Part shown: piece by piece, positions 18,846 through 53,755 of the stretch
How positions within the stretch are numbered: the first letter of the stretch is position 1
Layout: each line of letters begins with the position of its first letter
Assembly: GCA_018228645.1 (NCBI GenBank)
Contig: CP073693.1
Location: forward strand, 992,001-1,056,000
Direction: 5' to 3'
Length of the DNA: 64,000 bases
Source of the DNA: Clostridiaceae bacterium Marseille-Q4143
GTDB taxonomy: Bacteria > Bacillota > Clostridia > Lachnospirales > Lachnospiraceae
The notes under the pieces: model-generated
The model's input: the letters and a program-made list of their open reading frames with translations, nothing else
The model's database searches: none
What the model was told of the DNA's origin: nothing
Position numbers and translations under genes: made by a program

Positions 18846-20429
18846 TTATTCGATTTTGGGTGGTAGCTTCGGATAAAGCACCAGCTCGAAATTATCAAAT
18901 GGGCCATTTCGCCCGGAGCGTTCATTCTTTGTGTACTCGACCTTTTCAAGAACCTCTTTCAGCATTTCATTTTTGGCTTGAGCAGAGGGGAGAACGGGGT
19001 ACACTTCGAGGAGCTTTTCGACCTTTGGTATGACATTAAGGCGACTGGCGGCACGTTCCTTATCCGCCTGCACTTCGGCGGTAAGGGTAGAAATATCTTC
19101 CTTTGCAGCAGCGATACGCTCAGTGAGAGAGCGGGAGCGCACGAGGAAAGTGTCGGTATCGTAAACACCCTGTTCCAAAAGGTCGTGAGTGCGGTCGAGC
19201 TGTTTATGCAGAGTTTCAAGTTCAGTCACAGTTTTGCGCAGAGCCTTTTGCTTGAGGTCGAGGAGAGCTTGCTCGTCCGCCGGGAGTTTATCAGACCATT
19301 CGAGACGATAACCCTCCAACCATGAGGAGAGAGCCTGCAGTAACCGTTCTTCGACGTATTCATACTTCGAGCCTACATTGTCGCATATACGGTTGTGGCA
19401 GATAAGAATATCAAGGCGGCCTCTCCGCAGGACGATACTGCGGCCACATTTCCCGCAGACCAGAATACCGGCCAGAGGATTTACCACGGAATTTCGTTTC
19501 GGAACCGGTGGCGGGCCGGAGTGCTTGAACAGGTCTTGAGCTTTTTGGAAAACAGCTTCGTCAACTATCGCAGGGTGCAGACCATTAACGTATATCACCT
19601 CATCGGCAGGAGCCTTGTACCGTTCAACCTCAATGGAGTTGTTAACAATCCTTTTTTTGGATTTGTTCACACCCCAGCGGACTTTGCCGATATATGCAGG
19701 ATTTTGTAAAATGCACTGCACAGTCCTGTCGTTCCAGTATTGAGCGGAGGAGGGCGGAGCCACACCTAGACTGTCGAGCCGCTTCGAGATAGTGTATGTT
19801 CCGAGCCGACGGACTTCTCCGTTATCATCCTCCTCGCCAGAGGTATAGAGTTTAAAAATAAAGCGGACGATGTCGGCCTGTTCTTCAATAGGGCGGAGCG
19901 TCCAGCCCTTATCGCTCTTAATGCGGACACGCTCATACCCGTAAGGCGCAAGCCCGGATACCCATTTGCCCTCTTTTGCAGAGGCGTTTCGACCACGGAC
20001 CAAGCGGCGCTTTATGGTTTTATATTCACGCCGGGACATGAACAGGCCGAACTCGAAATATTCTTCGTCAAATTCGTTTCCCGGGTCATACACTTTCAAC
20101 GGCGTAATGATTTTAGTGCCAGAGTATTTGAAAGCCTGCGCCATAACGCCTTGGTCGATTGTATCACCACGGGCAAGACGCTCGACCTCAACGACAAGAA
20201 CACCCTCCCACTTTCCGTCCTCGACCTCTTGCAGGAGCTTTTGAACGACGGGACGGGCAGCTATTGTTTCGCCGGAGACGATTTCACGGTAGATTTGCGT
20301 GATATTATAATGCCCTCGTTTGGCAACTTCGAGCAGGAGCTTTTCATGCCGGGCCAGAGTTTCACCCTCGCCGTGAGCCTCCGCCTCGATGTCGGCACGG
20401 GATTTACGCAGGTAAAGGCAGTATGCCAA
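18846..20429 (-). CDS. Large serine recombinase (phage integrase)
   Basis: A 527-residue large serine recombinase that would catalyse attP x attB integration. The catalytic serine is in YLRKSRAD (Ser10), followed by resolvase-domain segments (VSGETIAARP, VVEVERLARGD). Then come the recombinase domain with PYGYERV, the zinc ribbon (LVCGKCGRSI ... CHNRIC) and a long coiled coil near the C terminus. I chose the TTG at 20429 because a perfect AGGAGG lies eight bases upstream; the longer frame from 20465 starts within a region with no ribosome site. It sits at the left phage end next to attL, as usual. Confidence 0.93.
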   Translation of the reverse strand: MAYCLYLRKSRADIEAEAHGEGETLARHEKLLLEVAKRGHYNITQIYREIVSGETIAARPVVQKLLQEVEDGKWEGVLVVEVERLARGDTIDQGVMAQAFKYSGTKIITPLKVYDPGNEFDEEYFEFGLFMSRREYKTIKRRLVRGRNASAKEGKWVSGLAPYGYERVRIKSDKGWTLRPIEEQADIVRFIFKLYTSGEEDDNGEVRRLGTYTISKRLDSLGVAPPSSAQYWNDRTVQCILQNPAYIGKVRWGVNKSKKRIVNNSIEVERYKAPADEVIYVNGLHPAIVDEAVFQKAQDLFKHSGPPPVPKRNSVVNPLAGILVCGKCGRSIVLRRGRLDILICHNRICDNVGSKYEYVEERLLQALSSWLEGYRLEWSDKLPADEQALLDLKQKALRKTVTELETLHKQLDRTHDLLEQGVYDTDTFLVRSRSLTERIAAAKEDISTLTAEVQADKERAASRLNVIPKVEKLLEVYPVLPSAQAKNEMLKEVLEKVEYTKNERSGRNGPFDNFELVLYPKLPPKIE

Positions 20430-20490
20430 AATAAACACCTCCTCGGTAAAAGAAAAGCCCCTCACACGGAGGGGCGGAAGTCAACAACAA

Positions 20491-21096
20491 TCACATTGCC
20501 GTCTTGCCGGAGAATACGCCTGTTACGCCGTTCTTGACGTTAAAAGCGATTTCCATATCGGCTTGCATGAGCCGGTCAAGCAGAGAGGCAATCTCGTTTT
20601 TGAGCTGCGACTGCAAGGCCATGAGGTCAGACAGCACAACGGGGTCTGTAACCGCACCGCCAGTAGCTTCAATCTTCTTTTGGATTTCAGAGCGGAGCGA
20701 CTGCAAGGTACGCAGCAGTTCCTCGTAAATGGCGATACGCTCCGGGCGAGCGCACTGCATATCCCGGTTGAGGAGCCGGTAGAAATCATCAAAACATTTT
20801 GAGACAGCCGGACGCAGTTCAGCAGGCAGGCTGTTGAAGTGCTTCTGGAAGTTTACGGTATCGTTGTAAAACACGTCCTCGCTATGGTTGGGACGGTCTG
20901 TATATCCAAGCAGGTAGTCGGTGGAAACGCCGAAATACTTCGCCAGCAGGCAGACGGTATCGAGGTCTGGTTGTTTACCCTCGGTTTCGTATCCAGAGAC
21001 GGTGGAACGCTTTTTGTAAATGATTTTTGCTATATCCTCTTGCGTGAGATTGCGCTCTTTGCGCAGGGATATGAGGCGGTTTGCGAATTTTGCCAT
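20491..21096 (-). CDS. CI-like XRE family repressor
   Basis: A 201-residue protein with an N-terminal helix-turn-helix (FANRLISLRKERNLTQEDIAKIIYKKRSTVSGYETEGKQPDLDTVCLLAKYFGVSTDYLLGY) and a helical C-terminal region. It lacks the Ser-Lys peptidase domain of LexA-type repressors, so RecA-triggered self-cleavage is unlikely and induction must work in another way. It is divergent from the Cro-like gene across TTGCCCC operators and lies upstream of the integrase on the same strand. A GGAGGTG site precedes its ATG. Confidence 0.85.
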   Translation of the reverse strand: MAKFANRLISLRKERNLTQEDIAKIIYKKRSTVSGYETEGKQPDLDTVCLLAKYFGVSTDYLLGYTDRPNHSEDVFYNDTVNFQKHFNSLPAELRPAVSKCFDDFYRLLNRDMQCARPERIAIYEELLRTLQSLRSEIQKKIEATGGAVTDPVVLSDLMALQSQLKNEIASLLDRLMQADMEIAFNVKNGVTGVFSGKTAM

Positions 21097-23638: not shown

Positions 23639-24661
23639 ATGGACAACAAAAACACATTACAGATTACGGCTCAGTACCCGGCAGAGAGGTACAACCTGCT
23701 GGTGCCTATGCAGACCGTAGCGGAGATTGCGGAAATCCACAAGCCGGTAATGAATGCCGTGCAGATTTCCACGAACCCGGCTGACAAAGAGATTTACGAG
23801 CAGGAAAAAGCCTCAGAAGCATGGACTGGCAGAGACGGAAAGCGTCACCCGGCAAAACCCGCTGGCTGGGCCTTAACCAAAAAGGGCCTCAATAAGCTCA
23901 TGCGAGCAGCGGGCATTAAGATTTTGGGAACACGCCCGATTATCCCGTCCACCTGCCAGAAGTGCGCAGAGGTCAATAGGAATATTGGTCGCCCAGTAAA
24001 CTGCGGAGCTTGCGGCAACAAAGATGTGAAGTTTGAGGCAAGGATTTCCGTACCGCAGCTTACCGGGGAAAACATTGAGATTGTGGCGCACAAGGAAATT
24101 ATCGTGCAGGACGTAACTGACGGAATGACGGAAAACCAGAGAAAAGAGTTCTTGAAGTTCCGCAATGAAATGTGCGAGACCAAAGCAATCAACAGAGCCT
24201 TGAGAGCCGCAATGCACATCAAGGGAACATACTCACTGGAAGAACTGAAAAAGCCGTTTGTTGTTGCTTACCTCGTGCCGAACCTTGATAACGAGGCAGT
24301 AAAGGCAGAGGCGGTCAGACATTTCTTTACATCGGCGCAGGAACTTTACGGCGGCCACACCAGCGACGCACGAAAGGCAATCTTTGTCGAGGACGATGTA
24401 GAGGAGGGCATGGAGTACGAAACACCGAGCAAGCCTATCGAGCAGGCGGAGAACACGGCGTACAGAGAAGCCCCGGCGGAGCCGCCAAGAGCCACGCAGG
24501 AACGCCAGCAGGCGGCAGCAGAGGCGGCCCCGGACTTTGACCCGAATGTGTGCGTTGAGTGCGGAGTAAAGGTCAGCAACGGCGTTGTGAGATACAGCCA
24601 GCAGCAGTACGGAAGAACCCTCTGCATGGCTTGTCAGAGAAAACAGGGAGGTAATCAGTAA
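23639..24661 (+). CDS. Probable single-strand annealing/recombination protein with zinc ribbon
   Basis: A 340-residue protein in front of the SbcD-SbcC gene. The central segment RKEFLKFRNEMCETKAINRALRAAMHIKGTYSLEEL resembles the 'ETKA-RALR' signature of Rad52/Sak-like and ERF-like annealing proteins. Two cysteine clusters are visible: CQKCAEVN...CGACGN near residue 105-125 and CVECGV...CMACQRKQ at the C terminus, the latter a zinc ribbon after a low-complexity linker. As partner of the adjacent exonuclease complex it would anneal single strands during phage recombination. The annealing assignment is an inference from one motif and context. An AAGGAGG site precedes ATG. Confidence 0.5.
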   Translation: MDNKNTLQITAQYPAERYNLLVPMQTVAEIAEIHKPVMNAVQISTNPADKEIYEQEKASEAWTGRDGKRHPAKPAGWALTKKGLNKLMRAAGIKILGTRPIIPSTCQKCAEVNRNIGRPVNCGACGNKDVKFEARISVPQLTGENIEIVAHKEIIVQDVTDGMTENQRKEFLKFRNEMCETKAINRALRAAMHIKGTYSLEELKKPFVVAYLVPNLDNEAVKAEAVRHFFTSAQELYGGHTSDARKAIFVEDDVEEGMEYETPSKPIEQAENTAYREAPAEPPRATQERQQAAAEAAPDFDPNVCVECGVKVSNGVVRYSQQQYGRTLCMACQRKQGGNQ

Positions 24662-27600
24662 TGACAATCAGAATTTTACATACAGGCGATTTACATATCG
24701 GGAATTTCCCCGGCCCGGAGGAAAACGGGGAAAATGTGAGATTTAAGGACATCTGCAAGTGCCTTGACGCACTGGTAGAGGGCGCAAAGGAACAGAAGCC
24801 GGACATTGCGGTAATCGCAGGCGACATCTTTCATCAGGCCAGAGTTTGGAGCGACAGAGGATTGAAAGAGCAGCAGACGGCGGTACGCTTCCTGCGTGAG
24901 CTGGAAAGAATTTGCCCGGTAGTGGTTATGAGAGGAACCCCGAACCACGACAGTGAGGAGCAGTTCAAGACGCTTGACAGCACCTTTTACGGCGACGACA
25001 GCGTACACATCATCACGGAGCCGGACGTAGGCACATACCACAGCTACGACGGCAAGGCAGTACAGATTGCGTGCCTGCCGGGATTTGACAGAGGCTTTTA
25101 CAGAGCAAAGCACCCCGGCCTCTCAAAAGAGGAGGAAAACGAGGCATTTACACAGTCAATCGCAGATTTGATTGTTGGCCTCAAGGCGCAGTGCGAAGCA
25201 GGCAGCCCGACGGTGCTGGTATCGCACTACACCATTACCGGGTGCAACATGGAGAGCGGGCAGACAGCATTCTTTAGCCAGTTTGAGCCGGTGGTTTACC
25301 CGGACACGCTGCAGGCGGCAGACTTTGACCTCGTATGCTTCGGACACATTCACAGACCGCAGCAGCTCGACGGGTGCAAGAATACATTCTACTGCGGAGC
25401 GATTTCGGCCCTCAACTTTAACGACGAGGGACAGGAGAGGGGCTACTGGCTGCACGATGTAGAGGACGACGGAACGGTACACTCCACATTCAAGCAGCTT
25501 CCGACAAGACAGTACAAAACAATCCGCCTCAAGGATGAGGACGTAGCGGAGATTATCAACGCAGACAGGGCAGAGGATAAGTTCCCGTTCCCGGTGCCGG
25601 ACGTAAAGGGAGACATCGTGAGAGTGCTTTACGACTGCACGGACGAGCATAACAAGGCATTCAACCATACGGTGTATGAGGCAGCACTCTACAACGTGGG
25701 CGGAGCCTTTTGGGTACAGGAGATTACACCGCAGAAAATCAGTATCACGGTGGATAAAAAGAGCATGGACGCAGACGGAACCCCGGAAAGCAACCTTGCG
25801 GAATACCTTGCGGAGAAAGAGTTCACGCCGGAACGTCTTGGAGAGGTTATCGAGCTGGCAAGACCGATTATCGCAGAAGCAACGGAGAAAGCCACGACAG
25901 AGAGACATACAGGGCTGTTTGTCCCGGTTGAGATTGAGGTCAAGAACTACCGCAACTACCGTGAGGAAACATTCTCGTTTGAGGATATTCGTTTCTGTAC
26001 CATTAACGGCAGCAACGGCGTAGGAAAGAGCAGCTTATTCATGGACGCAATGGCGGACGCTCTTTTCGAGGAGACCAGAGAGGGCGAACTCACCGGCTGG
26101 ATTTGCAATGACCCGGACGCACGAAGCGGCGCAATCAAATTCACATTCAAACTGGGCGAGAGCCTTTACAGAGTAACCAGAACCCGTCAGAAATCCGGCA
26201 AGGCAACGCTAAATATTTCGGAATTTGTTGAGGACGAATGGGTAGACCGCTCTAAGGAGAAGTTCAAAGACACCCAGCAGGAAATTATCAACATTATTGG
26301 CATGGATAGCCTCACGCTGAAAGCCTGCGCCCTTATCATGCAAGACCAGTACGGCCTCTTTTTACAGGCGGACAAAGAAGCCCGCATGAATATCCTCGGA
26401 AATATTCTCGGTCTTGGCATTTACGCCGGAATGGAGGAGCTGGCAGCGGACAAAGCGACGGAGACCAACAGACAGATAAGACAGTTGCAGGACAAGACGG
26501 ACGTTATCTTGTCGGGGCTGCCGGACAGAGCAGAGCTTGAGGCGCAGATTGCAGCGGAGGAAGAAACCAAAGCGACCTACGAGCAGACGGCAGCGGTAAA
26601 GGCAACGGAGATTGACGGTCTCAAGGTGAAGCTCAACACGCAGTTAGAGGCAGCGGGGCGTGTTATTAAGCTCAACGGTAAGATTACCACCCTCGGAACG
26701 CAGAAAGCCACCAAAGAGGCAGCAAAGACCTCACAGGTAGGCATTGTAACAGCGGCGGACACTATTCTTGCCAAAGAGGAGGAAATCACGGCAGGAGTGG
26801 CAGCCTACAACGGACTGCTGGAAAAGGAAAAAGAGCTGATTAAGGGCAAGGCTACATACGACAACCTCACGCAGAGAAAGAAGCAGCTCGAATCCGCCAT
26901 TGACCTTGCGGAAAAATCGGCAAAGGAACTGTCGCAGAAAAAGGCAGCGATTACGCTCGTGAAGATTGGGCCGCTTGAGGCAGCCATTTCCCGTGCGGCG
27001 GAGCTGGAAGAAAAGCACCAGCAGTACGAAAGCACCGCTGGAAAGATTGCGGAACTGGAAAAGGGATTGCCGGAGTACACAGAGCAGAGACAGGCGGTAC
27101 TCGACGCAGAGGCGGAGCTGGAAAGACTGGAAGCGGACTATGAGAAAGCAAAAGAGAAGCTGTCATACCGCATTACGACCCTCAAAGGCAAAGTTGAGCT
27201 TCTGGATAACAGCGGTTGCCCGGACGTAGAAAAGGCGAGCTGTAAGTTCCTTGCGGACGCACTGGAAGCCAAGAAAGTATTGCCGGAGGCAGAGACGGCA
27301 CTCACTTCCCTTGAGACAGAGTACGCAGCTAACCGTCAGAGCCTTTCAGATACGCTCAGACAGGCAGAAGCCGTGTTCAGCGATAAATTGCACCTCCCGG
27401 AGGAAATCGAGGCTCTTAGAGGCGATTTGAGAGTGCTTGAGGCAGCAGAGAAAGAGTACAGCGGCCTTGAGACGCAGAGAAACGAGCTGAAACTCATGCA
27501 GGAACGCTCCGAGGAGCTGGCAAAGGCGCAGGCGAGCGCAGAGGAGACAGCCACAAAGGGAAAAGCCGAACTGGAAAAGGTGACAGCAGAGCTTGAGGCG

Positions 27601-28524
27601 GTAGAAGCGGCCAACAGCGAATATGAGAAGTTACAGCAGGATATTTTGACAGCCAGAACATGGCTGGATAAGGAGAAGCAGCTCCCGGTAGCGAGACAGC
27701 AGAAAGAGGCGGCCAGCCTGCGAGTTCTTGAATTGAGTGGAGAGATTGAAGAACTCGAAAAAGAACTCGAAGAAACCCGTACAGAGCTTGCAGAGGAGCA
27801 GAGCAAGACCGTAGGCACGGCAGAGCTGCAGGCGCAGGTAGAAGCAGCAGAGGCGAAAATCAAGGCTATGCAGGACGCAGCGCAGGCGGCCACTCTGAAA
27901 CTCGGAGGTTTGAAGAAACAGGCGGAGGAGCTGACAGAGAAATTGAAACAGGCGGCAGAACTGCAGAACCGTGTAAACGTACTCGGAGGCAAGGCAGCCG
28001 GATATGAGGAATTGAAAAAGGCGTTCTCGCAGGACGGCATTCCTCACAACATTATCCGCAGCATTATCCCGGTATTTGAGGCCACGGCAACGAATATCCT
28101 CGGCCAGATGTCACAGGGCCGCATGAGCGTTGAGTTCGTGACTGAAAAGGTTTTGAAATCCAACAGCAAGAAAGAGGTAACAACCCTCGACATCATCATC
28201 AATGACGTAGACACCGGGCGACTTCCTTACATGAGCAGAAGCGGAGGCGAGAGGGTAAAAGCAGCATTGTCCGTTATCCTCGCTCTTTCGGAGATTAAGA
28301 GCAGCAAGGCAGGCGTACAGCTTGGGTTCCTGTTCATCGACGAGCCGCCATTCCTCGACGCTCCGGGCGTACAGGCATATTGCGACGCACTGGAAGCAAT
28401 TCAGAACAGATACAGCAATCTCAAGGTCATGGCAATCACCCATGACCCGGCTATGAAGTCGAGATTTCCGCAGAGCGTCGATGTAGTAAAGACGGCAGAG
28501 GGCAGCAAAGTAATTTATGAGTAG
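24661..28524 (+). CDS. SbcD-SbcC (Mre11-Rad50-like) single-chain nuclease-ATPase
   Basis: A 1287-residue fusion of two proteins normally encoded separately. Residues 1-340 are a calcineurin-like nuclease with all metal motifs: HTGDLHIG (Asp10, His12), AGDIFH, PNHD, VSHYT and CFGHIH. Residues from about 430 are an SMC-type ATPase: Walker A GSNGVGKSS near 450, a coiled coil (about 560-1110), the signature SRSGGERV near 1190 and Walker B FLFIDEPP near 1223. Mid-coil, where Rad50 carries CXXC, it has GCPDVEKASC near residue 852, a CX7C variant. Mre11-Rad50 complexes process DNA ends and hairpins. The start overlaps the previous stop by one base, so it is coupled to the annealing-type protein. Confidence 0.9.
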   Translation: MTIRILHTGDLHIGNFPGPEENGENVRFKDICKCLDALVEGAKEQKPDIAVIAGDIFHQARVWSDRGLKEQQTAVRFLRELERICPVVVMRGTPNHDSEEQFKTLDSTFYGDDSVHIITEPDVGTYHSYDGKAVQIACLPGFDRGFYRAKHPGLSKEEENEAFTQSIADLIVGLKAQCEAGSPTVLVSHYTITGCNMESGQTAFFSQFEPVVYPDTLQAADFDLVCFGHIHRPQQLDGCKNTFYCGAISALNFNDEGQERGYWLHDVEDDGTVHSTFKQLPTRQYKTIRLKDEDVAEIINADRAEDKFPFPVPDVKGDIVRVLYDCTDEHNKAFNHTVYEAALYNVGGAFWVQEITPQKISITVDKKSMDADGTPESNLAEYLAEKEFTPERLGEVIELARPIIAEATEKATTERHTGLFVPVEIEVKNYRNYREETFSFEDIRFCTINGSNGVGKSSLFMDAMADALFEETREGELTGWICNDPDARSGAIKFTFKLGESLYRVTRTRQKSGKATLNISEFVEDEWVDRSKEKFKDTQQEIINIIGMDSLTLKACALIMQDQYGLFLQADKEARMNILGNILGLGIYAGMEELAADKATETNRQIRQLQDKTDVILSGLPDRAELEAQIAAEEETKATYEQTAAVKATEIDGLKVKLNTQLEAAGRVIKLNGKITTLGTQKATKEAAKTSQVGIVTAADTILAKEEEITAGVAAYNGLLEKEKELIKGKATYDNLTQRKKQLESAIDLAEKSAKELSQKKAAITLVKIGPLEAAISRAAELEEKHQQYESTAGKIAELEKGLPEYTEQRQAVLDAEAELERLEADYEKAKEKLSYRITTLKGKVELLDNSGCPDVEKASCKFLADALEAKKVLPEAETALTSLETEYAANRQSLSDTLRQAEAVFSDKLHLPEEIEALRGDLRVLEAAEKEYSGLETQRNELKLMQERSEELAKAQASAEETATKGKAELEKVTAELEAVEAANSEYEKLQQDILTARTWLDKEKQLPVARQQKEAASLRVLELSGEIEELEKELEETRTELAEEQSKTVGTAELQAQVEAAEAKIKAMQDAAQAATLKLGGLKKQAEELTEKLKQAAELQNRVNVLGGKAAGYEELKKAFSQDGIPHNIIRSIIPVFEATATNILGQMSQGRMSVEFVTEKVLKSNSKKEVTTLDIIINDVDTGRLPYMSRSGGERVKAALSVILALSEIKSSKAGVQLGFLFIDEPPFLDAPGVQAYCDALEAIQNRYSNLKVMAITHDPAMKSRFPQSVDVVKTAEGSKVIYE

Positions 28525-28582: not shown

Positions 28583-29425
28583 TTGGGACGACCACGAAAA
28601 CAGACGGTAGACTACTTTCCGCATTTTGTAGGAGCCGACAGCAAGACCAAATTCATATTGGAGAATAAGTGGGGGAACGACGGCTATGCTTTTTGGTTCA
28701 AGTTATTAGAGCTTCTTGGCCGCAGCGACGGCCATTGTTACGACTGTTCGGTGAGCGCAAACAAGATGTACCTCGTTTCGCTGGCAAGGGTAAGCGAGGA
28801 GACGGCGGACGACATTTTAGAGACGCTTGCGGAGCTTGGAAAGATTGACAAGGAATTATGGGACACACACAAGCTCATTTGGTGTCAGAGACTTGTTGAC
28901 AACCTGCAGCAGGTTTACGCAAAGAGAACAGTACAGATACCATGCAAGCCGTTCACGGAACCGGCAGAGCCGACACCTGCACCAGCAGAGCTGCCTCAGA
29001 AGAAAGAGGAGCCAGAGCCGGAGGCAGAGGAAAAGCCGAAAAAGAGAGGCAGACCCACAAAGCGAAAGTCCATTCTCAAGGTAAAGCAGCAGGAGTTGTT
29101 TGAAAAATTCTATGCGGCATACCCGAAAAAACAGGACAGAGCCTCGGCAGAAAAGGCATGGGCGAAGATTGAGCCGGAGCCGGACGAGGCCATGACAGAG
29201 AAAATTATACAGGCGGTTGAGCTGTCAAAGAAATATGATAACCGTTTCAGAGAGAGACAGTACACGCCATTACCGGCCTCGTGGCTGAATGCTAAAGGCT
29301 ATTTGAACGAATTTGCACAGGAGGGAGGAAACGGCTATGGAGCTTACCAGAATAGGAGAAGCAGCGGGCCAGCGACAGACCCCGGAGGATTTACGCCGTC
29401 GGGAGGATTCAAAGGCAGTGAGTAA
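28583..29425 (+). CDS. Phage replication initiator (DUF4373/Lin1244-type N terminus)
   Basis: A 280-residue protein. Residues 1-110 form the DUF4373-like winged-helix domain (DYFPHFVGADSKTKFILENKWGNDGYAFWFKLLELLGRSDGHCYDCS). Then come a Pro/Glu-rich linker, an AT-hook-like basic segment (KKRGRPTKRK) and a C-terminal domain (FEKFYAAYPKKQDRASAEKAWAKI) common in phage DnaD/replication proteins. It probably binds the phage origin and recruits the next protein. The TTG start has AGGAGG eight bases upstream; there is no earlier in-frame ATG. Confidence 0.75.
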   Translation: MGRPRKQTVDYFPHFVGADSKTKFILENKWGNDGYAFWFKLLELLGRSDGHCYDCSVSANKMYLVSLARVSEETADDILETLAELGKIDKELWDTHKLIWCQRLVDNLQQVYAKRTVQIPCKPFTEPAEPTPAPAELPQKKEEPEPEAEEKPKKRGRPTKRKSILKVKQQELFEKFYAAYPKKQDRASAEKAWAKIEPEPDEAMTEKIIQAVELSKKYDNRFRERQYTPLPASWLNAKGYLNEFAQEGGNGYGAYQNRRSSGPATDPGGFTPSGGFKGSE

Positions 29426-30281
29426 CATGGTTACGCCGCAGGAAGCGAAAGAGAGAGGCATTCAGTGGCGTGTAGCACCGCCGGAGCCGCAGGTATGCCA
29501 GTTTTGCGGCCAGCCGATACAGCCGCAGGGCATTGTGTTGCAGAACATGGTTTTCCTTTGGAGACCGAATGTGCGCTGCACCTGCGAAAAGGCGGTTGCC
29601 TACTGGCAGGAATATGACCGCAAACAGGCGGAGGAGAAAGCCCGAAAAGAGGACGAGGAACGCAGGAGGGCCATGCAGAACAGGATTGACCGCCTGCTTG
29701 GAAACAGCGGTATTAAGAAGCGTTTCCAGCAGAGAACATTCCCGAACTTCCGAACCGACACACCGGGTCGCCAGAAAAATTACAGAGTTGCCAAAGAGTA
29801 TGCGGACAACTTCGCATACCACAAGGCAAAGGGTGACGGCCTCTACATAGAGGGAACCAACGGAACCGGCAAGACACATCTTGCGGCGGCGATTGCCTTA
29901 CAGCTTATCGGAGAGGGAATACCAGTAATATGCAAGACATCGAGCGACCTGCTTCTGGACGTGAAAAAGGCGTTTGACAACGAGGGAGTGACAGAGGCGC
30001 AGGTGTTGGACGCATACAAAAAGGTGGACTTGCTTATCATTGACGACCTCGGAAAAGAGCAGTGCAGCGATTGGAGTATGAGTACCCTCTACTCCATTCT
30101 GAATGACCGCTACGAGGACATGAAGCCGACAATTGTAACGACCAATTACAACACCGACAGTCTTATAAACGCCCTTACCCCAAAGGGATTTGATAACACA
30201 AAAATTGTGGCGATTATCAGCCGCTTGCGAGAAACCAGCACCGTAATGACTATGGCTTGGGAAGATTGCAGGGGCAAGTAA
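29337..30281 (+). CDS. DnaC-like helicase loader ATPase
   Basis: A 314-residue AAA+ protein. A four-Cys zinc segment (CQFCGQP...CTCEKA) lies near the N terminus, then a coiled region, then the ATPase with Walker A GTNGTGKTH near residue 173, Walker B LLIIDDLG near 231 and a sensor region (PTIVTTNYN). It belongs to the DnaC/DnaI-like loaders that place the replicative helicase. The ATG at 29337 has GGGAGG upstream and overlaps the initiator gene by 89 bases. No phage helicase is in this window, so the host DnaB is the likely client. Confidence 0.88.
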   Translation: MELTRIGEAAGQRQTPEDLRRREDSKAVSNMVTPQEAKERGIQWRVAPPEPQVCQFCGQPIQPQGIVLQNMVFLWRPNVRCTCEKAVAYWQEYDRKQAEEKARKEDEERRRAMQNRIDRLLGNSGIKKRFQQRTFPNFRTDTPGRQKNYRVAKEYADNFAYHKAKGDGLYIEGTNGTGKTHLAAAIALQLIGEGIPVICKTSSDLLLDVKKAFDNEGVTEAQVLDAYKKVDLLIIDDLGKEQCSDWSMSTLYSILNDRYEDMKPTIVTTNYNTDSLINALTPKGFDNTKIVAIISRLRETSTVMTMAWEDCRGK

Positions 30282-31428: not shown

Positions 31429-32565
31429 ATGGCAGAAATGAAAATCAGACACACGGAAACCGCAGGAGATTACAGCTCTGAGACAGTATTTGAGGGAAAA
31501 GACCTTGAATTTATCCACGAGGATTTACTCAAGACTTTGTTCGGGGCAAAGAACGTAACACCGGCCCCGGAGGGAAAGAAAGAGGTTAAGCTCGCAGCGG
31601 TTGAGACCAAGCAGCCGGGCGTAGAGGGGAACGTCGTAGCGATTTACGACAACGCCGGTATTCCCTCATTCATGTATAAATTCACCCGTGTAAGCAATAA
31701 GGAGCTGTTCGGAGGCAGCGACAGGCCTCACCCGGCATTTGTTATCGGCGGGGAGGTTTACGACGAAATTTATATTTCAGTCTACCCGAACTGCGAAATT
31801 AACGGGAAGCCGTACAGCCTGCCATATCAGAAGCCGTGGACGAACCTTACCAACGATGAAGCGTCAGAGGCTTGTTTCGGCAAGGGAGAGGGCTGGCACC
31901 TTATGACTGCAGCAGAATGGGGACTGATTGCAAATATCAGCCTCAAGAACGGAACCCTCCCGCACGGAAACACCAACGACGGCCAGCACCACGCAAACGC
32001 AACCGAAAAGGGCGTGAAGTACGACGGAGGCAACGGAAGAACCCTTACCGGCAGCGGCCCGGCTACATGGACGCACAACCACACCCTGGAGGGCGTACAC
32101 GATTTATGCGGAAACGTATGGGAAATGCTTAGAGGACTGCGTATCAAAGACGGCGTACTGTATGCAGCAAAGGACAATGACGCAGCACTCAACATCGACC
32201 TCACGCAGGAGGGAGACGACTGGCACAGAATTAAGGACGATTCCGGCAACATTGTAAAGGTATCGGTAGACGGCAGTATCAAGATTACCACATACCAGGC
32301 CATTGAGCAGGACTACACCGGGGACTGCTGGGAGGACGTAGACATCGACTGCGAGAGCGAACAGCTCAAGGAGCTTGCATTGTTCGCCGGGGAGCCGAAA
32401 GCGTACCTCTACATCGACAGCACCGACGGAGAATATTTCCCTCTTCGTGGTGGCTACTGGGGCATCGGTGCGTTTGCGGGTCTGTTCCACGCGCTCTTGA
32501 GCAACCCTCGCTCCCTTTCCTCCTGGGGCATCGGCTTCCGCTCCGCTTATTTCAAGAAACACTGA
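31429..32565 (+). CDS. C-type-lectin/FGE-fold protein with DGR-type variable region
   Basis: A 378-residue protein. After about 90 unknown residues a formylglycine-generating-enzyme-like (C-type lectin) domain begins: FVIGGEVYDEIYISVYPN, WHLMTAAEWGLIANI, GNVWEMLRGLRI. It ends in PLRGGYWGIGAFAG...SNPRSLSSWGIGFRSAYF, the layout of target proteins of diversity-generating retroelements: RGG-W start, repeated variable residues and GFRSAY end. The enzyme cysteines of true FGE are not evident, so it is probably a ligand-binding display protein. It lies among replication genes, not tail genes, and no reverse transcriptase is in the window. GGAGG precedes ATG. Confidence 0.8.
   Translation: MAEMKIRHTETAGDYSSETVFEGKDLEFIHEDLLKTLFGAKNVTPAPEGKKEVKLAAVETKQPGVEGNVVAIYDNAGIPSFMYKFTRVSNKELFGGSDRPHPAFVIGGEVYDEIYISVYPNCEINGKPYSLPYQKPWTNLTNDEASEACFGKGEGWHLMTAAEWGLIANISLKNGTLPHGNTNDGQHHANATEKGVKYDGGNGRTLTGSGPATWTHNHTLEGVHDLCGNVWEMLRGLRIKDGVLYAAKDNDAALNIDLTQEGDDWHRIKDDSGNIVKVSVDGSIKITTYQAIEQDYTGDCWEDVDIDCESEQLKELALFAGEPKAYLYIDSTDGEYFPLRGGYWGIGAFAGLFHALLSNPRSLSSWGIGFRSAYFKKH
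32443..32550 (+). repeat. Putative DGR variable repeat (VR)
   Basis: The last 36 or so codons of the lectin-fold gene. Codons at 32455, 32461, 32464, 32473, 32488, 32494, 32500, 32503, 32515, 32518, 32527 and 32530 are all of the NNY type (TAC, GGC, ATC, TTT, CAC, CTC, AGC, AAC, CTT, TCC, GGC, ATC), as expected if each came from an AAY codon of a template by adenine mutagenesis. Bases 32458-32547 contain only six adenines in 90, in a phage otherwise rich in A and G. Confidence 0.7.
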
Positions 32566-32589
32566 TAACTGCTTACTGAGCAACTGACA

Positions 32590-32609
32590 GGGGCGGCGAT
32601 AGTCGCCCC
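32590..32609 (+). other. Hairpin downstream of the variable region
   Basis: GGGGCG (32590-32595) and CGCCCC (32604-32609) form a stem with an 8-base loop, 24 bases after the stop codon. DGR variable regions of Bordetella phage type have a GC-rich hairpin just downstream that aids homing. No T run follows, so a terminator role is less likely. Confidence 0.55.
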
Positions 32610-32631
32610 ATGCAGAAAGGAGGCGGAGGAA

Positions 32632-33519
32632 ACGGCCAAACGAGGAGACATTTACTATATCAGAGGGACAGAGACGACAGGCAGCGAGCAGGGCGGAAAC
32701 AGACCGGCAGTAATCGTGAGCAACAATACCGGGAACCGCCATGCGCCGGTAGTAGAAGTCGTTTACCTCACAACAAAGAGAAAGACCACCATTCCGACGC
32801 ACGTTTACATAAATTCAGCCCGGAGGCCGTCAATAGCCCTTTGCGAGCAGATTGTAACGGTATGCAAAAGCAGGCTCAAGGAGCATATCGGGAGCGTAAC
32901 CGTGGCGGAAATGAGAAAAATTGACCGGGCTTTACAGACAAGCCTCGGAATACAGAAAACAGGAGGAGAGAATATGCAGGTAACAATCAAAACCCCACTC
33001 GGGGAAATGAGCTTCAATATGACGCAGGATAAGGCTAACGACCTTATGAAGAAAGCACTGGACTACGCAACCGGGCAGGAGGAGAAAGAAGAAACACCCG
33101 TCAGACCCGCCAGCGTACCGCAGGAGCCGCCGAAAGTTATCAAGCCAAAGGACAAGCCATGCAGCAGAGTAGAAAGTCTTTTCGGGGATTTCAGAGGCGC
33201 AAGCGTAGCACAGGAAGAAAAGGAAGAACCGGCGGAGCCGGAGGAGTACAGAGGATTTTTGCTTATCAAGTGCCAGCATTGCGGAAAAGTCAAGGGATTT
33301 TGCAGCAAAACCCCGATGTCAAAGTACACCTGCGAGTGTGGAAAGATTACGCCTTTGCATGACCTTAAAATGGCTCACTTACATTGCAAATGCGGAAGCT
33401 ACTGGAAGTACAAGACCAATATCACCGACGAAACATTTGACTACAACTGCTTGAACTGCGGAAACCCGGTAAGTATGCAGTTGAATAACCGCAGAAACAC
33501 ATACGTCACAATCGAGTAA
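32632..33519 (+). CDS. MazF/PemK-like protein, apparent ACG start, no stop before zinc-ribbon protein
   Basis: The frame from 32632 encodes a MazF-fold protein: AKRGDIYYIRG, GGNRPAVIVSNN (catalytic-type Arg), VVYLTTKRK (catalytic-type Thr), PTHVYI, CEQIVTVCKSRL and a helical end ALQTSLGIQ. No ATG, GTG or TTG lies in frame between the stop at 32566 and a GTG at 32716, which is already past the conserved start. AAAGGAGG (32616-32623) is placed eight bases before an ACG that stands exactly where ATG is expected. The frame then runs on without stop into the next gene (32974). MazF proteins cut RNA at short sites; no antitoxin is seen beside it. Either it starts weakly at ACG or it is silenced by start-codon loss. 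Confidence 0.65.
   Translation, partial: TAKRGDIYYIRGTETTGSEQGGNRPAVIVSNNTGNRHAPVVEVVYLTTKRKTTIPTHVYINSARRPSIALCEQIVTVCKSRLKEHIGSVTVAEMRKIDRALQTSLGIQKTGGENMQVTIKTPLGEMSFNMTQDKANDLMKKALDYATGQEEKEETPVRPASVPQEPPKVIKPKDKPCSRVESLFGDFRGASVAQEEKEEPAEPEEYRGFLLIKCQHCGKVKGFCSKTPMSKYTCECGKITPLHDLKMAHLHCKCGSYWKYKTNITDETFDYNCLNCGNPVSMQLNNRRNTYVTIE
32974..33519 (+). CDS. Zinc-ribbon phage protein (in frame with MazF-like ORF)
   Basis: AGGAGG seven bases before ATG 32974 shows an independent start of a 181-residue protein (MQVTIKTPLGEMSFNMTQDKANDLM...). After a charged, Pro-rich linker the C-terminal part has four CXXC-type groups: IKCQHCGKVKGFC, YTCECGKIT, LHCKCGSYW and YNCLNCGNP, a double zinc ribbon. 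Readthrough from the upstream MazF-like frame would give a 295-residue fusion. The role is unknown; zinc ribbons of this kind bind nucleic acids or proteins. Confidence 0.65.
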   Translation: MQVTIKTPLGEMSFNMTQDKANDLMKKALDYATGQEEKEETPVRPASVPQEPPKVIKPKDKPCSRVESLFGDFRGASVAQEEKEEPAEPEEYRGFLLIKCQHCGKVKGFCSKTPMSKYTCECGKITPLHDLKMAHLHCKCGSYWKYKTNITDETFDYNCLNCGNPVSMQLNNRRNTYVTIE

Positions 33520-52738: not shown

Positions 52739-53749
52739 TTACTCGTCCCCGATGTCGAGCGTCCATATTCTTTTCAGCGGGATTTTTTGCTTTATATCAT
52801 CATCGAGAGAGGGATAGCAGGCGAGCAGTTCTTCGATAATTTCCTTTTTCGACCATAGGCGAACCTTGAAGAATTGCATAGCACGTTCACGCTCGACAGA
52901 GGAGCGGAAACCACTCCACGAAACCAAGAGACCGTATTCAGCACCGACATTCGCCATAGTGCCTATGAGCTGGTCTAAAACGATACGGTCAATAGCGTCA
53001 TTCGTGGATTTCACCTGTACGCAGATTTTCGGAGAGGAGAACCCAAGACTACCGGCAGAGGCAAGAATGTCAACGCCGTGGTCGGGGCCTTTTGGACTGA
53101 CGTAGGTAACGAAACCTTTTGCCCGGAGGATTGCAGCAACGATGTGAGCAAGGCCGTCACCCTTGAAATTCTGAATTATGAAATCGGAGATAGCGTCAAG
53201 AGATTCGGTCTCAATGTCCCGAAACGGGGAATTTTCCGGGGGGGGGGTAAAACTTTGTTCACTATTTGGGGCAGGACGGAACAGGGAAACAGCTTTCTTT
53301 ATTCGGGCCTCCTGCTTTATTTGGCAGGTGGTAATAGCAGCACCGAGCGAGTATTGAATATCCTGCTCGAAAACACTTTTCGGAACGTCAGAGAACCACT
53401 CGACAGAGCGGGAGTGACGGTAACAGTCCTCAACCTCTGTATCAAAGGCATATTCGCCCACGATTTTTCCGAAATGGAGTATTCCGGGCAGATTTTTACT
53501 CGGAGTGATAACCCAATCATCGACGGACATTCTACTGCTGAAAATGTGAGCTTGACTTGCGAAATTCAAGGCAGCCCGCTCTTTTAGGGTTGGGACTTTT
53601 TCGAGGAAATACTGCTGGATTGCAGCTCTCCCGGAAAAGGAATTTAGCGGTTTATCTATTTCTTCAAACGTGAAGTAGATTTTATTGTTTTCAAGGAACC
53701 GTGCTTCATGCTCCCCAAAGCGTCCGGCACGGCACAACCATATAGACAT
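52739..53749 (-). CDS. Mrr-type restriction endonuclease with EVE-like N-terminal domain
   Basis: A 336-residue enzyme antisense to the tail genes. Residues 1-145 (IWLCRAGRFGEHEARFLENNKIYFTFEE, DDWVITPSKNLPGILHFGKIVGEYAF, CYRHSRSVEW) resemble EVE/PUA-like base-reading domains. Residues 185-300 are an Mrr_cat PD-(D/E)XK nuclease: LAHIVAAILRAKGF, GPDHGVDILA (Asp227) and KICVQVKS (Gln245, Lys247). This suggests cutting of modified DNA, hence phage defence by the lysogen. A C10 tract in the linker (53238-53247) could switch it on and off. The start ATG 53749 has GGGAGG upstream; the GTG at 53755 is too close to it. It ends one base from the chaperone long form. Confidence 0.82.
   Translation of the reverse strand: MSIWLCRAGRFGEHEARFLENNKIYFTFEEIDKPLNSFSGRAAIQQYFLEKVPTLKERAALNFASQAHIFSSRMSVDDWVITPSKNLPGILHFGKIVGEYAFDTEVEDCYRHSRSVEWFSDVPKSVFEQDIQYSLGAAITTCQIKQEARIKKAVSLFRPAPNSEQSFTPPPENSPFRDIETESLDAISDFIIQNFKGDGLAHIVAAILRAKGFVTYVSPKGPDHGVDILASAGSLGFSSPKICVQVKSTNDAIDRIVLDQLIGTMANVGAEYGLLVSWSGFRSSVERERAMQFFKVRLWSKKEIIEELLACYPSLDDDIKQKIPLKRIWTLDIGDE
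53238..53247 (-). repeat. C10 homopolymer tract in the restriction gene
   Basis: Ten G on the plus strand, so ten C in the gene, encoding part of TPPPE near residue 170. One added C brings a TGA after nine codons; one lost C brings a TAA after about twenty codons. Either change removes the whole nuclease domain but leaves the reading domain. Confidence 0.85.
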
Positions 53750-53755
53750 AGGCAC

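What the first reader, a model, noticed from the sequence alone, without database searches (positions are those of the whole stretch)
32443..32609. DGR-type variable region in an early-region lectin-fold protein, with no reverse transcriptase in the window
Seen: the gene 31429-32565 ends in an RGG-W...GFRSAY segment. Twelve codons in 32455-32532 are all NNY and chemically diverse, and 32458-32547 has six A in 90 bases. A GC hairpin follows at 32590-32609. Known: DGRs copy a template repeat with mutated adenines into such C-type-lectin ends. Inferred: a template repeat carrying AAY codons at these places and an RT must lie elsewhere (right of the window or in the host). Most phage DGR targets are tail fibres; this one sits among replication genes next to MazF- and MazG-like genes, so what it diversifies is unclear.
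Basis: partly seen in the sequence, partly recalled or inferred. Interest (0 to 1): 0.87.

Follow-up and report, generated by a model that had tools for sequence, protein, structure and literature searches.

The report
Second, remote target of phage hypermutation cassette
This prophage early gene ends in a stretch that a reverse-transcriptase mutation cassette, encoded tens of kilobases away beside the tail genes in its nearest relative, appears to rewrite over and over, so the phage seems to diversify a second binding protein besides its tail tip.

Summary
The gene at 31429-32565 ends in a DGR variable repeat (VR). The window's own assembly is not held. In its nearest relative (G001, syntenic to the window's last base) a DGR cassette (tail-end target, Avd-like protein, TR, RT) begins about 0.14 kb past the homologous window end. 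The window VR differs from that TR at 18 of 100 sites, 16 of them TR adenines (p=2e-11). Twenty-two close alleles vary at the same codons. In 12 phages the remote VR matches its own TR except at adenines (142/283 A sites differ, 2/917 others), while other phages' TRs fit badly (median 24 non-A mismatches). A GRNA-loop hairpin follows, as at known DGR targets. The predicted fold is that of DGR protein TaqVP. Fourteen tail-cassette and 11 early-region targets fall on two sides of one fully supported branch: old paralogues served by one template. Remote second targets near counter-defence genes are published (Quimbyvirus; four gut prophages), and Lagaffe's two VRs too, so this is a new member of a known kind. 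What the early protein binds is unknown; I favour an early, non-virion binding protein in phage-host conflict, unproven.

The parts
31429..32565 (+). early-region DGR target gene, 378 aa, FGE-type C-type-lectin fold
   Evidence: Pfam FGE-sulfatase E 4.8e-4, 20.3 bits, under the curated cut-off of 23.3; phrog_2889 E 2.5e-101; AF2 model mean pLDDT 87.5, best PDB match TaqVP 5vf4 E 1.9e-34, TM 0.77, 32% id
31429..31629 (+). N-terminal strand-strand-helix module and linker, not aligned to anything in the 14 tail-cassette paralogues
   Evidence: alignment A4; low confidence in the model (pLDDT about 34-60)
32443..32546 (+). variable repeat (VR), ending in the IMH-like GGCTTCCGCTCCGC
   Evidence: 18 differences in 100 nt from G001 TR, 16 at TR adenines, p 2.4e-11; allele variation
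32547..32589 (+). VR-to-hairpin spacer with four phased CTG repeats (steps 7, 7, 8); the stop codon lies in it
   Evidence: at least 3 CTG after 25 of 25 remote and 15 of 15 tail VRs, 0 of 16 TRs; 1.9% of random 42-nt stretches of the window
32590..32609 (+). hairpin, 8-pair stem with one G-T, loop GATA = GRNA, the DGR target-recognition type
   Evidence: consensus from PMC3240598 (passages)
32644..33519 (+). MazF/PemK-like neighbour with a longer C-terminal part; not part of the DGR mechanism
   Evidence: PF02452 E 2.5e-25; adjacency survey

Best explanation
The C-terminal 100 bp of this early gene is a remote variable repeat of a phage DGR. RNA of a template repeat (TR), next to an Avd-like gene and the RT beside the tail genes (in the nearest relative 33 kb away; expected at about 65.7-67.4 kb in window coordinates, just outside), is copied with errors at adenines, and the cDNA replaces the VR, positioned by the IMH and the downstream GRNA-loop hairpin. 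One TR serves two old paralogues: a tail-end target and this early one. Shown on relatives: TR and RT, A-only divergence, tracking of each phage's own TR, the paralogue split. Inferred: the same cassette in this genome, the homing steps (known from BPP-1), and the function. My functional commitment (about 0.45): an early-expressed, non-virion binding protein whose variable lectin face is selected in phage-host or phage-phage conflict (counter-defence or exclusion).
For: TR, Avd-like ORF and RT in G001 and synteny to the window's end. 16 of 18 differences from that TR at adenines. 13 codons carry 2610 of 5372 pairwise differences among 23 alleles; every site with 4 or more residues is a TR-A codon, counting 339. 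12 phages: 142/283 A sites differ and 2/917 others; other phages' TRs give median 24 non-A mismatches, minimum 13, n=128 after leaving out 2 close pairs. Nine of 14 bacterial-genome copies tested have a TR with at most 1 non-A mismatch in their genome. GRNA hairpins after most VRs, after none of 16 TRs. TaqVP fold. One branch, 100/100, parts 14 tail from 11 early targets. Function only: early module between DnaC-like loader and SSB; N/D-F-D N-terminus in 14 of 14 tail targets, 0 of 11 early.
Against: The window's own TR and RT are not seen. Two of 18 differences are non-A (32488, 32535; L001 also has C at the second). The window hairpin lies 43 nt after the IMH core, beyond the published 4-34. 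12 of 30 viral records searched, many of them fragments, have no RT, and 2 of 15 bacterial genomes searched (those of L092 and L104, both MAGs) have none. L009/L093 carries an intact early target beside an RT remnant and no TR; for L097 and L099 no TR fits and L099's VR is frameshifted. On function: no virion, expression or binding data; mixed neighbours; a weaker PHROG match is named tail protein (phrog_5302, E 2.7e-11); many weaker viral structure matches are named tail collar fiber; homologues in a Klebsiella and a Pseudomonas phage sit at tail ends.
Confidence: 0.93

Rival explanations
1. It is a second virion receptor- or mucus-binding protein, expressed from an unusual place; the DGR broadens adsorption through two tail proteins, as suggested for Lagaffe_CP in PMC11792537.
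For: Same fold and homologous to the tail-end targets; weak tail-protein matches; homologues at tail ends in a Klebsiella and a Pseudomonas phage; the published reading of Lagaffe.
Against: Early module near DnaC-like loader, MazF-like, MazG-like and SSB genes; lacks the N/D-F-D N-terminus of all 14 tail targets aligned; old split.
Confidence: 0.28
2. It acts in the lysogen, diversified so that the prophage alters the cell surface or excludes other phages.
For: A temperate phage (integrase and repressor-like genes); the gene lies downstream of the regulators.
Against: No signal peptide seen in the N-terminus (read by eye, no predictor run); a DNA-replication gene neighbourhood rather than a place next to the repressor.
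Confidence: 0.17
3. A relic: an old VR no longer rewritten, with NNY codons left over from past activity.
For: L009/L093 shows such a state.
Against: 23 close alleles differ at the A codons; the remote VR equals its own TR at non-A bases, save 2 of 917, in 12 phages.
Confidence: 0.05
4. Not a DGR: ordinary positive selection or assembly noise in a lectin-like tail.
For: None beyond the unseen own TR.
Against: Adenine specificity (p 2e-11) and TR tracking, hairpin.
Confidence: 0.01

Closest known systems
Faecalibacterium phage Lagaffe (NC_047911), gp26 + gp40
   Same: One TR/RT; tail-end target gp26 and early target gp40 between an IS30-type transposase and ERF/SSB genes; VR2 equals TR at all non-A sites of 100; two VRs already reported for Lagaffe_CP in PMC11792537 (passages).
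   Different: gp40 lacks the N-terminal module and has about 115 residues after the VR; the authors suggest both targets act in host range.
Quimbyvirus DGR (PMC8008677)
   Same: Two C-type-lectin targets, one structural, one distal among methyltransferases and a nuclease (passages).
   Different: Bacteroides phage; RT in three frames; second target on the opposite strand; homology to this protein not tested here.
Four gut prophage species with distal second VR (PMC12629997)
   Different: Target families not described in the passages read; not compared here.
nd4 and nd12 phages with tentaclin and second target (PMC10743442)
   Same: Gut phage DGRs with two C-type-lectin targets under one TR (passages).
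   Different: Both targets are called part of the DGR cassette in the passages read; one VR is near the 5' end of its gene.
TaqVP, Thermus aquaticus DGR variable protein (PDB 5vf4)
   Same: Whole fold, 32% identity, TM 0.77, E 1.9e-34; FGE-type C-type lectin (PMC6328139, passages).
   Different: Its genome context was not examined here; the window protein has a low-confidence N-terminal module, whose counterpart in TaqVP was not looked for.
Bordetella phage BPP-1 Mtd
   Same: Mechanism and GRNA-loop hairpin (PMC3240598, passages); FGE-type lectin end.
   Different: A trimeric tail protein; its record's 'variable region 2' in bbp36 is a plain tandem repeat unrelated to the TR.

Membership tests
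DGR (diversity-generating retroelement) | RT of the DGR group in the same element | tested here: inconclusive
   Absent from the window and own assembly not held; a general RT family (PF00078) matches in 18 of 30 relatives' records searched, 17 over the cut-off, and in the nearest relative just past the homologous end; assignment to the DGR group rests on the neighbouring TR, no RT tree was made
DGR (diversity-generating retroelement) | TR nearly identical to the VR, differing at TR adenines | tested here: met
   With the nearest relative's TR: 16 of 18 differences at A; in 12 phages with their own TR: 2 of 917 non-A sites differ. The window's own TR is unseen
DGR (diversity-generating retroelement) | VR at the 3' end of a C-type-lectin or Ig-like target gene | tested here: met
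DGR (diversity-generating retroelement) | IMH and GC hairpin with GRNA loop downstream of VR, not of TR | tested here: met
   GRNA loop after 19 of 25 remote VRs (window included), 12 of 15 tail VRs, 0 of 16 TRs; window distance 43 nt is above the published 4-34
DGR (diversity-generating retroelement) | Strain variation concentrated at TR-A codons | tested here: met
   22 alleles plus the window: 2610 of 5372 pairwise differences at 13 of 378 sites
DGR (diversity-generating retroelement) | Active mutagenic homing | not testable with these tools
   No reads or homing assay at hand
Phage DGR with distal non-structural second target (Quimbyvirus type) | Two targets, one at the tail genes, one distal | tested here: inconclusive
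   Both present in relatives; in this genome the first would lie outside the window
Phage DGR with distal non-structural second target (Quimbyvirus type) | Second target lies among defence or counter-defence genes | tested here: inconclusive
   86 neighbours within 2 genes: 5 ParB_N, 4 PemK, 3 N6_N4_Mtase, 2 C5 methylase, mixed rest; a far-gene control was listed but not run
Major tropism determinant (Mtd, virion receptor-binding protein) | Sits on the tail tip and decides adsorption | not testable with these tools
   No proteome; early gene place and missing N/D-F-D N-terminus speak against, tail-named weak matches for

The most novel reading that the evidence does not exclude
Clostridial gut phages have long kept two separate antibody-like proteins under one hypermutation template: one for the tail, one early-expressed and working inside the infected cell, so that the same cassette evolves both host recognition and an intracellular binder of rapidly changing host or rival-phage proteins.
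Probability: 0.4. Interest if true: 0.87.

Novelty: new member of a known kind. Interest (0 to 1): 0.55.

Why it matters
It adds this phage and a set of Lachnospiraceae, Oscillospiraceae and related prophages to the published cases of remote, non-tail DGR targets, and turns scattered reports into a testable pattern: two old paralogues, one template. PMC8144416 says that its survey of DGRs would not detect remote targets (passage), so such proteins may be under-counted. If the early protein works inside the cell, a DGR would be a phage's in-cell affinity-maturation system.

Tried and rejected
Template within the window: none. RT within the window: none. Trans-acting DGR from another contig for the dead-RT F. 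naviforme copy: no place in the 11 kb around that genome's other RT (L107) fits its VR with fewer than 29 non-A mismatches of 95. BPP-1 'variable region 2' as a precedent for an early target: it is a tandem repeat. CTG spacer as a guide pairing with cassette RNA: in 8 phages the longest complementary run is no longer than in shuffled spacers. MazF as obligate partner: a MazF-like gene lies within 10 kb (less where flanks are short) in 12 of 39 loci, 10 of these within 0.6 kb, but six of the ten look like one phage lineage by gene order, and the search model was seeded from these same loci, so the link is weak (the single-linkage cluster, 17 loci, overstated it by joining C-terminal parts). N-terminal module: no Pfam hit in 8 N-termini scanned, only weak PHROG hits, best E 0.0012. 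Promoter and terminator scan: counts within those of shuffled sequence, none of the terminators on the + strand.

Residue choice at AAY codons (19 phages for VR2, 17 for VR1): Tyr and Ser are above what independent base frequencies give, clearly in VR2 (40 against 26, 43 against 28), slightly in VR1 (38 against 32, 22 against 19); Cys is below in both (3 against 17, 3 against 13). Suggestive of protein-level selection, but neighbour effects of the mutation process are not excluded.

A close relative of the window's right end was sought in viral contigs: only the G001 contig came back.

Full report
WHAT IS THERE. The window holds the left part of a prophage: integrase 18846-20465(-), which also matches DNA invertases and so is serine-type by inference; repressor-like regulator 20491-21096(-); then rightward a regulator, an SbcD/SbcC fusion, replication initiator, DnaC-like loader (29313-30281), the finding's gene (31429-32565), a MazF-like gene, a MazG-like pyrophosphohydrolase, SSB, a Holliday junction resolvase, a ParB-like gene, terminase (41146), tail sheath (50242) and baseplate and tail genes up to the window's end. 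The left 18.7 kb has no match in the fetched pieces of the nearest phage record. So the gene is in the early/replication module, on the same strand.

OBSERVATION. All stated features are present.

TEMPLATE AND RT. The window's assembly is not held. G001, an 81,173-bp IMG/VR record (the contig of L013), matches from 18778 to 64000 in segments of 87-96% identity with three short gaps. It encodes an RT (PF00078 E 1e-24) in a cassette: 356-aa tail-end target, 129-aa ORF, TR, 471-aa RT. I call the 129-aa ORF Avd-like from its place and size; it was not searched. The records of Lagaffe and Dulem virus 37 name an Avd at that place. Carried over by synteny, the tail-end target would start about 139 nt past the window's end, the TR at about 65.7 kb and the RT at about 65.9-67.4 kb (arithmetic; inference).

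ADENINE SPECIFICITY. Window VR against that TR over 100 nt: 18 differences, 16 at the 23 TR adenines (hypergeometric p 2.4e-11). Of 932 homologous proteins the best 120 were listed; the 22 best (92-94% identical) plus the window were compared. The 13 codons predicted by the TR hold 2610 of 5372 pairwise differences although they are 13 of 378 sites; 45 of the other 365 sites vary at all; all sites with four or more residues are TR-A codons, counting 339, whose TR codon is ATT.

GENERALITY. Of 53 viral loci, 30 records were searched for an RT; 18 had one, 12 (many of them fragments) had none. Paired with the RT loci: in 11 the early VR fits the TR of its own contig with 0 (8 cases) or 1 (3 cases) non-A mismatch in 100 nt; in 6 the query gene was itself the cassette target; in 1 (L009) no TR was found. 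With Lagaffe added and the register set by the IMH, 12 phages: 142 of 283 A sites differ, 2 of 917 other sites. Against other phages' TRs the median is 24 non-A mismatches and the minimum 13 (128 comparisons; two close phage pairs left out, whose cross-comparisons give 0-2). So each remote VR tracks its own TR, as expected from recent, repeated writing. Dulem virus 37 is a poorer case: 4 non-A mismatches in 90. Of 17 bacterial genome loci (titles name Lachnospiraceae, Blautia, Eubacterium, Gemmiger, Oscillospiraceae, F. naviforme and unplaced Clostridia), 14 were tested: 9 have a TR with at most 1 non-A mismatch in the same genome; for L100 and L102 the scan was out of register past the IMH (7 and 6 mismatches), by eye 0 and 1 inside the VR; L093, L097 and L099 have none. 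For L103 and L100 the TR is on another contig. Two of 15 genomes, those of L092 and L104, show no RT at all. L096/L012 and L093/L009 look like the same phages, so the two sets overlap. Target-to-RT distances in contigs are about 6-16 kb (L007, L011, L012, L014, L020, Lagaffe) or 33-39 kb (L002, L013, L015, L016, L018, L038) (from coordinates).

CIS ELEMENTS. PMC3240598 (passages) gives the phage DGR hairpin as a 7-10 bp GC-rich stem with a GRNA loop, 4-34 bp after the VR. The window has an 8-pair stem (one G-T) with loop GATA, 43 nt after the IMH core, so somewhat farther. Twenty-six remote and 18 cassette loci were given; one remote (L103) and two cassette loci (L088, L118) gave no row because the IMH pattern missed. 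A GRNA loop follows 19 of 25 remote VRs, 12 of 15 tail VRs and 0 of 16 TRs. L009 and L014 have other loops; L020, Lagaffe gp40, L100 and L102 show no hairpin in reach. In the stricter scan (no mismatch), which the window's own hairpin fails, 0 of 20,000 random window places gave a stem of at least 7 with such a loop. Between VR and hairpin lie 3-5 CTG triplets: at least 3 after 25 of 25 remote and 15 of 15 tail VRs, at most 2 after 16 TRs; 1.9% of random 42-mers have 3 or more. In the 17 remote spacers measured (of 25) the steps are 7 or 8 nt in 41 of 45; three of the rest are 15, one 9. In Lagaffe gp40 and L020 this stretch is coding, so a DNA or RNA signal is likelier than a peptide. BalMu-1 has three such triplets, VHML two, BPP-1 no such series. 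I saw no mention of it in one literature search (listing only) or in the passages of PMC3240598 read.

PROTEIN. AF2 model: residues 70-378 mostly at pLDDT above 90; N-terminal 1-40 low-confidence strand-strand-helix; 40-66 below 50. The best PDB match, far ahead of the rest, is TaqVP. In A4 (25 proteins, my choice) all 14 tail-cassette targets begin with N/D-F-D (13 NFD, L087 DFD); none of the 11 early ones does (closest: KDFV in L038). Early ones have a variable N-terminus or, in Lagaffe and L020, a C-terminal extension. The tree without the VR puts the 14 and the 11 on two sides of one branch with 100/100 support: not recent duplicates. One early row (L038's) is a long branch. Whether the early group is a clade or a grade depends on the root, which is unknown.

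FUNCTION. Nothing here tests it. For a non-virion early role: gene place, different termini, old separate history. Against: tail-end homologues in a Klebsiella and a Pseudomonas phage, weak matches to tail-named families and models. Neighbours include methyltransferases, ParB-like and MazF-like genes, in line with, but weaker than, the counter-defence islands of PMC8008677 and PMC12629997. One prophage keeps the gene beside an RT remnant.

NOVELTY. Papers, passages only: PMC11792537 reports two VRs in Lagaffe_CP, Lelie and CP11 and suggests that Lagaffe's pair serves host range; PMC5883640 first described Lagaffe's DGR; PMC8008677 reports a structural and a distal defence-island target in Quimbyvirus; PMC12629997 reports four prophages with distal VRs near counter-defence genes; PMC10743442 describes phage DGRs with two targets; PMC8144416 says its survey would miss remote targets. 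Hence a new member of a known kind. What I did not find in the listings and the passages named: that the early and tail targets are two old paralogue groups under one template, or the CTG element. Subscription papers are mostly not in that library.

On re-reading the calls I corrected counts and labels (Avd-like name, distances, the partly circular RT control, genomes without RT, tail-named matches).

Noticed in passing
32547-32589, and after VRs in L079-L087, L089, L110-L123: Three to five CTG (mostly ACTG) triplets, stepped 7 or 8 nt where measured, lie between VR and hairpin in both tail and early targets, and not after TRs: a possible unreported DGR target signal.
   Followed up: partly
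32569-32716: The MazF-like frame has no ATG/GTG/TTG before 32716, inside the conserved N-terminal part, and L001 and L013 look alike there, although the frame is open; relatives such as L002 start with ATG.
   Followed up: no
L108:6111-7622 (F. naviforme prophage): No Avd ORF or TR lies between the tail target and an RT remnant of 130 aa; both target genes are open there: it looks like a naturally frozen DGR.
   Followed up: partly
L125:33229-33558 (BPP-1 record): The feature called 'variable region 2' is a 24-nt (8-codon) tandem repeat with no likeness to the TR.
   Followed up: yes
24661-28524: SbcD- and SbcC-like halves in one 1287-aa early protein.
   Followed up: no
52739-53755 (-): An ORF that looks restriction-endonuclease-like by eye on the opposite strand inside the tail module (not searched); Dulem virus 37 has an annotated PD-(D/E)XK gene against the grain near its terminase.
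   Followed up: no
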